Positions 1,017 through 22,822 of a stretch of DNA of 37,551 bases are shown one piece after another. The DNA is from Leucothrix pacifica (GTDB lineage Bacteria; Pseudomonadota; Gammaproteobacteria; Thiotrichales; Thiotrichaceae): assembly GCF_003172875.1 (NCBI RefSeq), contig NZ_QGKM01000026.1, positions 1-37,551 on the forward strand. Direction: 5' to 3'. The notes below the pieces were generated by a model. The model was not told the origin of the DNA. It was given only the letters and a program-made list of their open reading frames with translations, and ran no database searches. The translations under genes were made by a program, and so were the position numbers. Each line of letters opens with the position of its first letter. The first letter of the stretch is position 1.

Positions 1017-1057
1017 TAGGATAGTCTGTCTTTGACTCTGGAGATGTGATCCATTCT
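1017..1057. repeat. 41-bp dispersed repeat, copy 1
   Basis: This 41-bp stretch matches 11991-12031 without gaps at 36 of 41 positions; both begin TAGGATAG and end GTGATCCATTCT. It fills the gap between two convergent genes and ends 2 nt from the stop codon of the antitoxin-like gene. I see no other copy in the window. Confidence 0.7.
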
Positions 1058-11990: not shown

Positions 11991-12031
11991 TAGGATAGCC
12001 TGCCCTTGACTCGGGATATGTGATCCATTCT
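11991..12031. repeat. 41-bp dispersed repeat, copy 2
   Basis: This is the partner of 1017-1057, with 36 of 41 bases identical and no gap. It begins 19 nt after the stop of the giant protein gene, again between convergent genes. Confidence 0.7.
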
Positions 12032-14293: not shown

Positions 14294-14373
14294 TGTAAAC
14301 AAATAAGTTGCTTAAAACAGTATAAGAAACACATTAGTTTCTTTTTTGGTTATAAGCAACTTATTTGTTTCTT
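14294..14373 (-). promoter_or_regulatory. three tandem palindromic operators of hipBA, 30-bp period
   Basis: Three 20-bp sites of the form AAG(A/C)AAC-N6-GTT(T/G)CTT occur at 14294-14313 (left half degenerate, TGTAAAC), 14324-14343 and 14354-14373, each start exactly 30 bp after the last. Their outer parts create a perfect 18-bp inverted repeat, 14297-14314 against 14353-14370. A candidate -10 (TATACT on the minus strand) lies inside the array. This resembles the multi-operator control region of E. coli hipBA but with a different site sequence. Confidence 0.7.
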
Positions 14374-16069: not shown

Positions 16070-16141
16070 GGAGCTTGGGTGTATCACGCCGCGAATCGTT
16101 TCAAGCGCAGCTTGTGTGAGCAAGTGATATACCCAAGCTCC
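16070..16141 (-). repeat. hairpin element with conserved 36-nt core, copy A
   Basis: Arms 16070-16087 (GGAGCTTGGGTGTATCAC) and 16124-16141 pair over 18 bp with a single G-T wobble. They enclose a 36-nt core (16088-16123) that is 34/36 identical to 22415-22450. The element begins 10 nt after the stop codon of the E2 gene. In that gene's sense the core can form an inner CAAGC-TGC-GCTTG hairpin, or alternatively pair GCTGCG with CGCGGC. There is no T tract after it. Confidence 0.75.
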
Positions 16142-16151
16142 GGCATACTGA

Positions 16152-17593
16152 CTACTCAATAAAGAGCGTCGCCGGATGTTCCAAGTGTTCCCGCAAGCAC
16201 TGTATGAATTGCGCTGCTTCATAACCATCAACGATGCGATGGTCAAATGAGGAGGAGAGATTCATGATGTGTCGCGGTACGAATCCACCGTCTTTATACA
16301 CCGGTTGAGTCTGGATTTTGTTGACACCTATCACGCAGATTTCCGGGCTGTTGATCACGGGTGTGGAAACCAGCCCCCCCAGTTTTCCAAGGCTGGAGCA
16401 GGTGATGGTGGAGCCGCTGAGTTCGTCTTTGGCGAGTGTGCCCAAACGCGCCATGTCAGCGAGTCGTTTGATGCCTGCGGCGCTTTCCCAGATGTCCATT
16501 TGATCGGCATGACGCAGTACGGGAACCAGCAGACCACGGTCGGTTTGGGTGGCTACGCCGAGGTGTAATGCCTGATATTGGTGTAGCTTGCCGTTGACGT
16601 CGTCATAGTGCGCATTCATCACCGGGTAAACACGCGTGGCGAGGGTGATGGCGCGAAACAGCATGGGCAGTAGCGATAGTTTCGGCTGGTCATCGCGTCG
16701 TTGTTGGTTGAGGTGGGCGCGCAGCGATTCCAGTTCGGTGACGTCGATGGCTTCTACATAAGTGATGTGCGGGATGCGTTGTTTGGCATCTTGCATGCGT
16801 TCGGCGATTTTACGGCGTAGGCCGATGATGGATGTGGTGGTGGTTTCGCCTGCGTCTGCCAGCACCATTGGGCCAACACGTTGTGGCGTGACGAGTTGCT
16901 CTGCTTCCTGCTGCATTGGCGCGGTGTTTGTGAGCGCTTGGCCGATTGCCGGAGTGCTGATTGGTTCTGGTATATCGATGGCGGTAGGGTGACTGGCCTG
17001 AAGCAATAACTGGTCAAGATCCTGATGGAGTACACGACCATCCGGCCCACTGCCTAAGACGGTGTTGATGTCGATGCCGAGGTTTTTGGCGCGTTGCTTG
17101 ACTGCGGGTGCGCTGAGTTGGCGACTCAGGGTTGAAGTTTGTGCCGATTGTGTTGGTTCGGCAGTTGCCGTGATGGTCTCGGCTGTGCGCTCAGGGGAAA
17201 TTGTTGCATTGTTAGCCTCGGCTACCAGCTTTGCTGCGACAGGCTTGGTAGCTTGCGCCTGTTTCGCTGGCTTAACCGGTTCTGATTTAGCAATGGTCAT
17301 TTTGGGCGCTTCAGATTTTTCAGGTGCTTCAGATGTTGCTTTGGCGCGCGCGACATCAGCCACTTCCAGCACCACAATCACTGTTCCTACTGGTACTAAT
17401 TCACCGACTTCACCAGATAATTCGGTAATCACACCATCCACCGGTGAGGGTATCTCTACCACGGCTTTATCCGTCATGACGCCAGCAATCACATCGTCTT
17501 CTTTGACGGTGTCGCCGACTTTGACTTGCCATTCGACGATTTCACACTCGGTCATGCCTTCGCCGAGATCCGGCATTTTGATTTTGCAGAGAC

Positions 17594-17597
<4 letters not shown>
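16152..17597 (-). CDS. bkdB: branched-chain 2-oxoacid dehydrogenase E2 (lipoamide acyltransferase)
   Basis: The 481-aa protein is the acyltransferase core of the 2-oxoacid dehydrogenase complex. The lipoyl domain covers residues 1-80 with the lipoylated Lys44 in MTDKAVVEIP. A long Ala/Pro/Lys linker follows, then the peripheral subunit-binding domain at about 163-197 (APAVKQRAKNLGID, GSGPDGRVLHQDL). The catalytic domain starts about 250 and carries the active-site SFDHRIVDG near residue 453. It moves acyl groups derived from Val, Leu and Ile to CoA. The start ATG overlaps the E1-beta stop (ATGA), so the genes are co-translated. The expected E3 gene does not follow; instead a hairpin element lies 10 nt downstream. 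Confidence 0.92.
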
Positions 17598-20576: not shown

Positions 20577-22136
20577 TCAGTTGTTATATGCCTGCCAGTC
20601 AAAGCCAACAATATTCCGCTGCGCCTTACTAAACTCGATACCAATCAGGAAAATGTGAATCTCGCCATCATCATATTTAGCGGCGTAGTCTTTGTCGTGT
20701 AGCTGTTTCATGGCACTGCCGTCGCCTGTTTCACCGTCAATCACTTTGAACTCAAAGATATACACCTGTTTTTGTCCGTTCGCGAGTTTAAAGCGCAAAC
20801 TCAGGTCAATCCTTCCTTTATTGCTGGTGTCTTCTGCAATGGCGTCAATGCCCAGCGAACAAAGGTAGGCGTACATAACAGAGGCATAATAGCCTTCATA
20901 TTCTGCAATCGGATTCTTGCGATAATTATCGTTGGCGATGCCTGAGAACAGTGCTTTGAAATGCTGGTGCAAAGCATCAAAATCATTTTTCAGTAAGGCA
21001 CGAAGTACGGGTAAGCGTTCAGAGGGCTGGTTGGTTAAGTAACGATCCAAAATAACTTGGTTAAAGGTACTGCGCACTTCACGGTTGGGGTAGTTAAGCA
21101 GGAAAATGGTTTCTTCGAAGAGGGTTTCTTCGTGCTTAATGGTGAGGTAGCCGGTCTGGAATAACAGCGTTTCCAGCCGGATATGGTCGATATCAAAGTC
21201 ACTTAACTGAGTACTGCTGACCTCCATATTTTCGAAGTCCGGAATGTGGTAATTGCCTGATTTGAGCAGCGAAATAAGAAATGAGGGCGTGCCGGTTTCG
21301 AACCAATAAGGGCGGTAAGTTTTTTGCTTACTGAAAAATAGTAGTACATCGAATGGATTGTAAACGCCTTCACCTAACCATTGATAACCGTTGTACCAGC
21401 TCTTCATTTCTTCGCGGTCAACACCTTCCATATAGTCGGCAAAGACGGATTCCAGTTCACTTTGGGTATAGCCACAAATGGTGCTGTATTTGGCATCCAG
21501 CGTGATGTCTTCAAGATTATTCAGGCCACTAAAGACGGACACTTTAGAGAATTTACTGACACCCGTCAGAAAGGCAAAACGCACATATTCGTCATTGTCT
21601 TTAATCACGGAATAGAAATTGCGTAAGCCGTTACGCATCTCCGCAGCCATCTCCGGCTCGGTGATGTTATCGAGAATGGGTTTGTCGTATTCGTCGATCA
21701 GTACAACAGCACCATGGCCGTATTGCGTTTTAGACTTGCGAATCAGCTCCGCAAAGCGTCCCTTATTACTGGAACTGCTAAGCGATTCGATACCGAGTTG
21801 TTCGGAGCAAAGCTGTAAAGCCTCTTCGATGTGTTGGTCCAGATCGGTTTTATTGCGCAGCACACCCGCACCAAAGCTGATATTGATGACCGGGTACTTA
21901 ACAGACCAATCCCAGTGCGGGTGGATGTGCAGTCCTCGGAACAGAGTCTCGTTACCGGAGAATACTTCTGCCAGTGTGTTGACCATTAGAGATTTGCCGA
22001 AGCGGCGAGGTCGCGATAAAAAATAATACTTACTGGAGCTCAGTAAATTAAGTACGTGCTCTGTTTTGTCGACATAAGTAAAACCACCTTCGATAATGTT
22101 CGCTAAGGTACTCATGCCTACAGGTAATTTTTTCAT
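20577..22136 (-). CDS. AAA-ATPase-like protein with PD-(D/E)XK nuclease tail (PF09820 + DUF1703)
   Basis: The 519-aa protein begins MKKLPVGMSTLANIIEGGFTYVDKT, the standard opening of this family. A Walker-A-like SRPRRFGKSL lies at 41-50 and Walker B LIDEYDKP at about 146-153. A helical middle domain includes SWYNGYQWLGEGVYNPFDVL. The C-terminal DUF1703 nuclease-like domain (about 410-515) carries GRIDLSLRF and IFEFKVIDG, with the D and ExK residues of a PD-(D/E)XK site. The family is frequent, often in many paralogues, in Bacteroidetes, fusobacteria and filamentous gammaproteobacteria. Its role is unknown and it may be selfish or defensive. A 14-bp perfect palindrome lies just upstream. Confidence 0.88.
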   Translation of the reverse strand: MKKLPVGMSTLANIIEGGFTYVDKTEHVLNLLSSSKYYFLSRPRRFGKSLMVNTLAEVFSGNETLFRGLHIHPHWDWSVKYPVINISFGAGVLRNKTDLDQHIEEALQLCSEQLGIESLSSSSNKGRFAELIRKSKTQYGHGAVVLIDEYDKPILDNITEPEMAAEMRNGLRNFYSVIKDNDEYVRFAFLTGVSKFSKVSVFSGLNNLEDITLDAKYSTICGYTQSELESVFADYMEGVDREEMKSWYNGYQWLGEGVYNPFDVLLFFSKQKTYRPYWFETGTPSFLISLLKSGNYHIPDFENMEVSSTQLSDFDIDHIRLETLLFQTGYLTIKHEETLFEETIFLLNYPNREVRSTFNQVILDRYLTNQPSERLPVLRALLKNDFDALHQHFKALFSGIANDNYRKNPIAEYEGYYASVMYAYLCSLGIDAIAEDTSNKGRIDLSLRFKLANGQKQVYIFEFKVIDGETGDGSAMKQLHDKDYAAKYDDGEIHIFLIGIEFSKAQRNIVGFDWQAYNN

Positions 22137-22393: not shown

Positions 22394-22471
22394 GGCGAGT
22401 GCAGGGCATAGGGTGCCGCGAATCATTTCAAACGCAGCTTGTGTGAGCAAACCTTATGCCCGGCACTCGCC
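22394..22471 (-). repeat. hairpin element with conserved 36-nt core, copy B
   Basis: Arms 22394-22414 and 22451-22471 form a 21-bp stem with one A-G mismatch and one G-T wobble. The core 22415-22450 matches 16088-16123 at 34 of 36 positions with no gap. The stem sequence is unrelated to that of copy A. It begins 9 nt after the stop codon of the DUF2853 gene, in the same orientation as copy A relative to its upstream gene. Nothing else recognisable lies in the 344-bp gap between the two genes apart from the palindrome listed separately. Confidence 0.78.
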
Positions 22472-22480
22472 GGAAACAAA

Positions 22481-22822
22481 TCAAGAATAAACGGACTCTT
22501 TCTTGAAGTGTTTAGCAAGCAAGTAGTAAACCACTGCACGCTGTTTATTAGGGTTAGACTTACCATAAGTCTCAAGCACAGAAGCAATTGCATCATCCAG
22601 CTCAGGGCCATCTTCAAGACCAAGCTTCTTAATCAGGAAGTTGTTCTTCACTGTCTCAAGCTCTTTCTTGTCGCTACCTGCAACACTTGCCGAATCTTTG
22701 TTGTAGATAGAAGGGCCACAACCGATAGTGACTTTAGTCAGGAAGTCCATGTCTGGTTCAATCCCACATTTGTCTTTTAAATCCGATGCATACTTAGCAA
22801 TTAAATCATCTCTTTTGCTCAT
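22481..22822 (-). CDS. DUF2853 family protein
   Basis: This is a 113-aa soluble protein, MSKRDDLIAKYASDLKDKCG followed by PDMDFLTKVTIGCGPSIYNKDSASVAGSDKKEL and a C-terminal KRAVVYYLLAKHF-type helix. These motifs and the length match DUF2853, small all-helical proteins of unknown function. No signal peptide or membrane segment is present. It is transcribed alone and divergently from the metallophosphoesterase. Its 3' end is followed after 9 nt by the conserved hairpin element copy B. Confidence 0.82.
   Translation of the reverse strand: MSKRDDLIAKYASDLKDKCGIEPDMDFLTKVTIGCGPSIYNKDSASVAGSDKKELETVKNNFLIKKLGLEDGPELDDAIASVLETYGKSNPNKQRAVVYYLLAKHFKKESVYS

What the first reader, a model, noticed from the sequence alone, without database searches (positions are those of the whole stretch)
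22394..22471. Conserved 36-nt core held inside two hairpins with unrelated but self-complementary stems
The cores at 22415-22450 and 16088-16123 are the same length and differ at only 2 of 36 bases. The flanking arms differ completely between copies, yet each pair forms a near-perfect stem (21 bp here, 18 bp in copy A). Such independent complementarity implies selection on structure: a structured RNA or a single-strand DNA hairpin element (REP or attC-like). Alternatively a 36-bp mobile unit may insert into loops of existing hairpins. Both changed core positions stay compatible with an inner CAAGC-TGC-GYTTG stem, or fall in the loop of a competing GCTGCG/CGCGGC stem. I know of no named family with this core.
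Basis: partly seen in the sequence, partly recalled or inferred. Interest (0 to 1): 0.8.

Follow-up and report, generated by a model that had tools for sequence, protein, structure and literature searches.

The report
Leucothrix hairpins: fixed cap, drifting stem
The two hairpins belong to a family of DNA repeats in the marine bacterium Leucothrix whose tip stays nearly fixed while the long stem keeps changing in matched pairs, which suggests that one folded strand is kept by selection, perhaps as a docking site for a protein not yet known.

Summary
Observation confirmed and extended. The window copies belong to a family of long intergenic hairpins, so far essentially confined to Leucothrix. 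Each has a conserved, bulged cap on a stem of median 23 bp.

Stem letters drift while pairing is kept: cells changed on both sides 105 vs 34 in shuffles (A, 19 copies), 601 vs 176 (B). Of 206 imperfect stem pairs on the core-sense strand, 93 are G·T, 26 A·C, 87 other: selection on one folded strand is likely. 61 of 104 copies lie within 30 nt of a stop codon on their 3' side. Most are oriented against the inferred replication fork (21/25, 21/30; 13/13 between convergent genes); the window copies are exceptions.

Tested and not met: GTAG/CGTC REP (tag rare; no Y1 transposase in 6 of 7 genomes), attC (0/104), Rfam. The arms share a weak consensus, and one pair of loci shares the whole 82-bp hairpin with unrelated flanks: the unit is the hairpin, not a 36-bp insert. 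Best reading: REP-like element with a protein-read cap, more likely ssDNA than RNA. Partner unknown.

The parts
22394..22471 (+). hairpin copy 1 (family A): left arm 22394-22414, cap 22415-22450, right arm 22451-22471
   Evidence: (80 bits, E 8.1e-17)
22415..22450 (+). conserved cap of copy 1; inner stem of the family consensus weakened by one substitution (CAAAC/GCTTG)
16070..16141 (+). hairpin copy 2 (family A): left arm 16070-16087, cap 16088-16123, right arm 16124-16141
   Evidence: (88.7 bits, E 4.0e-19)
16088..16123 (+). conserved cap of copy 2; family consensus structure: GC pairs, GAA bulge, inner stem CAAGC/GCTTG, GCA triloop
   Evidence: this inner stem is in the RNA fold but not in the DNA fold
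22481..22822 (-). DUF2853 gene; its stop codon (22481-22483) begins 10 nt past the 3' foot of copy 1
16152..17597 (-). 2-oxoacid dehydrogenase acyltransferase (E2) gene; its stop codon (16152-16154) begins 11 nt past the 3' foot of copy 2

Best explanation
The hairpins are members of a Leucothrix, REP-like dispersed element of about 70-110 nt: a stem of about 20-25 bp closed by a conserved bulged cap. SHOWN: many copies, two families with different caps, stems that change in matched pairs, a G·T over A·C excess on the core-sense strand, placement often just beyond stop codons, orientation bias against the inferred fork in two genomes, and one case of the whole 82-bp hairpin at two sites with unrelated flanks. 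INFERRED: the folded core-sense strand is the functional molecule; an unidentified protein reads the cap, while the stem only has to be a duplex and so drifts. Because orientation follows the fork even between convergent genes, and 36 of the 89 copies with both neighbours called are antisense to both, I think it acts as a single-stranded DNA hairpin exposed at replication, spreading as a non-autonomous element and perhaps serving the chromosome, more likely than as RNA.
For: Copies: R1 matches in 6 of 7 genus genomes, R2 in the same 6. Covariation: A, 105 cells changed on both sides vs 34.2 in shuffles, covariation score 0.520 vs 0.176; B, 601 vs 175.7, 0.631 vs 0.151. Every outer-stem pair modelled (18 and 22) has a two-sided change, a weaker measure, since shuffles also give many. 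In 104 stems G·T 93, A·C 26, other 87 (G·T vs A·C p 5e-10); in the 19 copies found by core pattern 22 vs 1; in A found by model 30 vs 7; in B 41 vs 18. Wobble pairs kept inside the A cap (T·G in 13 of 19 at columns 31/48). Orientation: 21 of 25 in G003, 21 of 30 in G000, convergent sites 8 of 8 and 5 of 5. Right gene stop-facing in 68 of 95, within 30 nt in 61 of these; flanks A/C-rich, G-poor for about 30 nt on the core-sense strand. Whole-hairpin copy at two sites. Core inverted between kept arms at the ALDH gene.
Against: No partner found: PF01797 in 1 of 7 genomes, reverse transcriptase not in G003, integron integrase above cut-off in 3 of 7. [quoted passage not shown] Both window copies run with the fork inferred from contig skew. 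The two strands fold almost equally well in the window copies as DNA. G·T also suits RNA. Copies are not independent: several G003 copies are clustered near 4.35 Mb, and four lie near the assumed terminus. Within G003 alone G·T vs A·C is 12 vs 4 in anti copies (p 0.08) and 0 vs 0 in the others. Not every copy is kept: at the L124 site G005 has a decayed copy whose arms no longer pair. The two middle pairs of the B inner stem are non-standard in most rows (54 and 53). Protein binding was not tested.
Confidence: 0.4

Rival explanations
1. A structured RNA element: the core-sense strand is transcribed (from a neighbour or its own promoter) and the cap binds a protein or ribonuclease, for example to set mRNA 3' ends, or the hairpin is a small RNA.
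For: G·T preferred over A·C, wobble pairs in the A cap, A/C-rich flanks and G-poor apical loops of 34-36 nt in 13 B copies, nearness to stop codons. Di Nocera et al. take G·T pairing in REP stems as a hint of RNA function (PMC3733652, part read).
Against: The folded strand is antisense to the right-hand gene in 68 of 95 and to both neighbours in 36 of 89; orientation follows the fork at convergent sites; no T tract after the hairpin on that strand; no Rfam family over the copies at gathering score. No expression data were at hand.
Confidence: 0.3
2. A palindrome kept up by mutation: hairpin-templated repair copies each change from one arm to the other, so covariation needs no selection; copies are inert debris of past spread.
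For: Core inverted between kept arms at the ALDH locus; pairing extended into the cap in L047 and L049; paired transversions, seen by eye, in the orthologous stems L115/L121; a decayed copy in G005.
Against: Templated correction has no reason to leave G·T 3.6 times as often as A·C on one strand, nor to keep the cap nearly invariant.
Confidence: 0.15
3. Relics of classical REP elements mobilised by a Y1 (RAYT) transposase since lost.
For: Inverted pairs about 25-200 bp apart; GTRR at the 5' foot in 13 of 40 A vs 4 in a control position; intergenic, mostly after stops, as in REPs (PMC3733652); whole-hairpin copy at two sites.
Against: GTAG at the foot in 5 of 40 A (control 2) and 1 of 64 B (control 1); stems much longer than the 6-13 bp of REPs; no Y1 domain in G003, which carries both families; signs of continuing selection on the stem.
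Confidence: 0.1
4. attC-like recombination sites of an integron integrase.
For: Three of 7 genomes carry an integron integrase above the curated cut-off; structure more than sequence is kept.
Against: R''/R' box pairs at the foot in 0 of 104; R1 and R2 do not match around the integrases; no convincing attC array in 12 kb (G000, G006) or 3.2 kb (G004), only one weak candidate in L343 (repeats were sought in the first two only); G003 has none above cut-off but 25 copies.
Confidence: 0.03

Closest known systems
REP / BIME / REPIN elements (GTAG families, RAYT-associated)
   Same: dispersed intergenic imperfect hairpins, often downstream of genes, inverted pairs, G·T pairs in stems, a bulge that may be read
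   Different: stem about 20-25 bp with drifting letters (REP stems 6-13 bp, PMC3733652), GTAG rare, cap conserved rather than stem, Y1 transposase in only 1 of 7 genomes
CGTC REP families, described as lacking a dedicated transposase (PMC3733652)
   Same: dispersed palindromes without a known enzyme, some set inside longer palindromes
   Different: CGTC or its complement at the feet in at most 2 copies per family and end; long drifting stems
attC sites of integrons
   Same: folded strand with bulged bases; structure kept while sequence varies (recalled)
   Different: no R boxes, no cassette array seen, conserved part at the apex not the base
Bacterial MITEs and stem-loop families (ERIC, NEMIS, SLS families)
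   Same: intergenic, hairpin-forming, probably non-autonomous
   Different: there the terminal repeats are the shared part; here the arms are the most variable part
Structured RNAs with variable helices and conserved internal loops
   Same: covariation and wobble preference
   Different: no Rfam 15 family over the copies at gathering score; transcription unknown

Membership tests
GTAG REP (RAYT-associated) | GTAG tetranucleotide at one end (>90% of members in most families, PMC3733652) | tested here: not met
   5' foot: 5 of 40 A (control 2), 1 of 64 B (control 1); 3' foot 0 and 0
GTAG REP (RAYT-associated) | short palindrome, stem 6-13 bp | tested here: not met
   median stem 23, range 11-33, in 104 copies
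GTAG REP (RAYT-associated) | cognate Y1 transposase (PF01797) in the genome | tested here: not met
   no match in 6 of 7 genomes incl. G003 (two contigs); three of those six are 56-69% complete; G000 has three near-identical 149-aa copies
GTAG REP (RAYT-associated) | intergenic, mostly downstream of ORFs, often in inverted pairs | tested here: met
   right stop-facing 68 of 95; inverted pairs
CGTC REP | CGTC at one end | tested here: not met
   CGTC: 5' foot 0 of 40 and 1 of 64, 3' foot 1 and 0; GACG: 5' foot 0 and 0, 3' foot 1 and 2
integron attC | paired R'' and R' boxes at the stem base | tested here: not met
   0 of 104
integron attC | integron integrase in every host genome | tested here: not met
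   above cut-off in 3 of 7; not in G003
MITE | terminal inverted repeats conserved between copies | tested here: not met
   outer arm pairs vary most
MITE | shared ends with an autonomous element | not tested
   no autonomous element was sought
intrinsic terminator | G+C-rich stem followed by a T run | tested here: inconclusive
   T 0.13-0.14 in the 10 nt after the hairpin on the core-sense strand; about 0.40 on the other strand
known RNA family (Rfam 15) | covariance-model match at gathering score over the element | tested here: not met
   window 0; over loci only sub-threshold microRNA-like matches at two copies; none at E<=0.5 in 13 further loci
protein-binding hairpin | bound by a specific protein | not testable with these tools
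   none

The most novel reading that the evidence does not exclude
A new class of replication-polar hairpin element: a conserved bulged cap on a sequence-free stem, selected as one folded strand, spread by a non-Y1 enzyme or kept for a chromosome function at forks, with different caps (A, B, three-way and open-loop forms) evolving within one genus.
Probability: 0.3. Interest if true: 0.8.

Novelty: new variant of a known kind. Interest (0 to 1): 0.55.

Why it matters
In the dispersed bacterial palindromes I compared it with, the stem or the ends are the shared part. Here the cap is the shared part, the stem drifts in matched pairs, and the wobble pattern points to the strand that folds. That helps separate selection on structure from mutational upkeep of palindromes, which is usually hard. 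A REP-like family without a Y1 transposase in most of its hosts, with fork polarity, is a concrete system in which to look for another enzyme or host factor that reads hairpins.

Tried and rejected
Core as a 36-bp insert into old hairpins: rejected; the whole hairpin is shared by two sites with unrelated flanks and arms carry a family consensus. Empty sites between close relatives: 12 joined flank pairs (G001, G004) were searched in G001, G004 and G005; besides their own loci they matched only one more G001 contig and two G005 places. One of these, the L124 site, holds a decayed copy in G005; none gave a clean empty site. In more distant orthologues an element is present in one genome and not seen in the other (prpE G000 vs G006; L133 and L135 in G000 vs G003; L128 in G001 vs G006; L119 in G005 vs G000), but the DNA is too diverged to place an insertion point.

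Reverse transcriptase as partner: none in G003. Phage, plasmid and viral carriage: no match for copy 1 in phages and plasmids, none for core patterns of A and B in viral contigs. Other genera: R1 none in 56 genomes of the order; R2 one weak match, G079; R2 none in the 273 genomes other than G000 drawn from the class; searches ran with stricter filters. A blind scan of 260 kb of G076 and 124 kb of G079 showed other long hairpins, not this cap, apart from the G079 match itself. G006 C37 skew was too mixed to use. Protein-structure tools were not used, since no protein is tied to the element.

Rows dropped: L034 and L037 (degenerate arms) and L126, L128 (near-duplicates) from A; L116 is in neither list; the loci L122, L129, L130 and L131 are counted in B under other locus ids. 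Of 80 R2 matches, 12 antisense or duplicate rows were dropped, then L234 (other genus), L278 at 687, L259 at 4268 and L289 (weak or truncated) from the stem and context counts. The near-identical orthologues L291 and L243 were both kept. The truncated L259 copy is in the orientation count; one search also counts L034, L037 and L289. ORFs come from a mechanical finder: it scored window copy 1 as not stop-facing because of an overlapping ORF, although the DUF2853 gene there is stop-facing.

Full report
WHAT IS THERE. The window holds two hairpins, 22394-22471 and 16070-16141, with 36-nt cores differing at 2 positions and self-complementary arms. It is a whole contig (C66) of a 5.0 Mb, 146-contig genome, G000. 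An exact core pattern in genome-contig hit two contigs, both of an uncultured Leucothrix genome; their lengths equal two contigs of the same-genus genome G001, so I place the host in Leucothrix.

FAMILY A. A core pattern with up to 3 mismatches gave 12 matches in G000, 5 in G001, 3 in G003, 1 in G005, none in the other three genus genomes and none in 50 genomes of other genera; the reversed-pattern control gave none. A model from 19 copies gave 50 matches at E<=1 in 6 of 7 genus genomes, some of them antisense or really family B, and none at E<=0.001 in 56 other genomes of the order. On A1 88.9% of cells pair, against 70.4% in shuffles and 30-45% in slid controls.

FAMILY B. A blind scan of 400 kb each of G003, G000 and G006 found 8 long hairpins with loop >=14; 5 share another cap, AGTCCTTNCG...GTCGGCG, and none of the 8 is family A. 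Model R2 (8 copies) matched 6 of 7 genus genomes and once, weakly, G079 of another genus; in 274 genomes drawn from the class only G000 itself matched at E<=1e-4. On A4 (79 distinct rows, some antisense) all 22 outer-stem pairs show two-sided changes; cells changed on both sides 601 vs 176. The stretch GGTATT (pairs 9-14 from the foot) is the commonest in 51-71 of 79 rows. Some G001, G004 and G005 copies have an extra hairpin in the A cap (L115, L121, L123, L127) or, in 13 B copies, an open apical loop of 34-36 nt with 12% G.

THE UNIT. L113 (G004) and L118 (G005) are 90% identical over 82 bp, that is the hairpin plus about 5 nt on each side, with no flank homology: the hairpin with its arms has been copied as one unit. 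At orthologous loci L115/L121 and L233/L250 pairing is kept while letters change; in L233/L250 the apical loop is replaced at nearly equal length. At the ALDH gene G000 (L047) and G003 (L036) share arms but the core is inverted. Beside one gene (93-95% identical) G000, G003 and G006 carry different hairpins, and a G005 copy at the L124 site has decayed: turnover is high.

WHICH STRAND FOLDS. In 104 stems (2335 pairs, 91% Watson-Crick) the rest are 93 G·T, 26 A·C and 87 other on the core-sense strand. G·T and A·C were scored alike in that alignment. In the 19 pattern-found copies it is 22 and 1; model-found copies can lean to the model's strand. Templated correction alone should leave both kinds alike. 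Replication-linked mutation bias could contribute; with the observed orientation I would expect it to favour A·C (inference).

PLACE AND POLARITY. The gene beyond the 3' foot is stop-facing in 68 of 95 copies with a right gene called (24 of 36 A, 44 of 59 B), within 30 nt in 61, two of them overlapping slightly. Proteins at 19 loci are unrelated to one another except two pairs; those I took for housekeeping enzymes were read by eye, except the window genes, searched in Pfam. In G003 (2 contigs) 21 of 25 elements run against the fork inferred from GC skew, 8 of 8 between convergent genes. In G000, with contig skew of at least 0.02, 21 of 30 (p 0.04; 23 of 33 without that filter) and 5 of 5 convergent among 28 typed copies. 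The window contig has skew +0.078, so both window copies are exceptions. Replichore borders (1.90 and 3.95 Mb) were set by me, and clustered copies are not independent.

MECHANISM. A nearly invariant cap on a free stem suggests a protein that reads the cap. That GCGNAGC mini-hairpins are unusually stable in DNA is recalled, not from a call. RNA remains a serious rival.

COMPARISON. Of Di Nocera et al. 2013 (PMC3733652) I read parts 1-3 of 8: GTAG and CGTC tags, short stems, G·T pairing, location mostly downstream of ORFs, no dedicated transposase for CGTC REPs. Of PMC8266576, PMC2267715 and PMC2800124 I saw passages; of PMC6006769 the start of the abstract. Paper searches listed nothing that I recognised as this family; they cover only open-licence papers. 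The elements live like REPs but fail the REP, attC and MITE features tested, so I call them a new variant of a known kind.

LIMITS. Draft genomes, mechanical ORF calls, fork direction from skew, model-based copy finding, no expression or binding data.

Noticed in passing
G000:C63, locus L345 2789-4623 and 4879-7175: A CRISPR array of 27 repeats, followed by ORFs two of which are short and Cas2-like (named by eye); three family A copies lie around it, two with broken arms.
   Followed up: partly
L325, L326, L327 (G004, G000, G006): Integron integrases scoring 429-444 bits, with no convincing attC array in the DNA fetched around them.
   Followed up: partly
window 1017-1057 and 11991-12031: A 41-nt direct repeat (88% identical) on either side of the 2891-aa ORF.
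   Followed up: no
window 14297-14370: A 34-nt inverted repeat (85%) with a 6-nt loop beside an HTH_3 gene.
   Followed up: no
window 20577-22136: A predicted AAA-ATPase_like plus PDDEXK_9 nuclease protein.
   Followed up: no
L009 1143-1285 (minus strand): An FMN riboswitch (116 bits) near one family A copy.
   Followed up: no
L139, L140, L141 (G000): Three near-identical 149-aa Y1 transposase genes, IS200-like; no match in the other six genus genomes.
   Followed up: partly
L234 (G079, another genus): A long hairpin with a cap partly like family B, the only match outside Leucothrix.
   Followed up: partly
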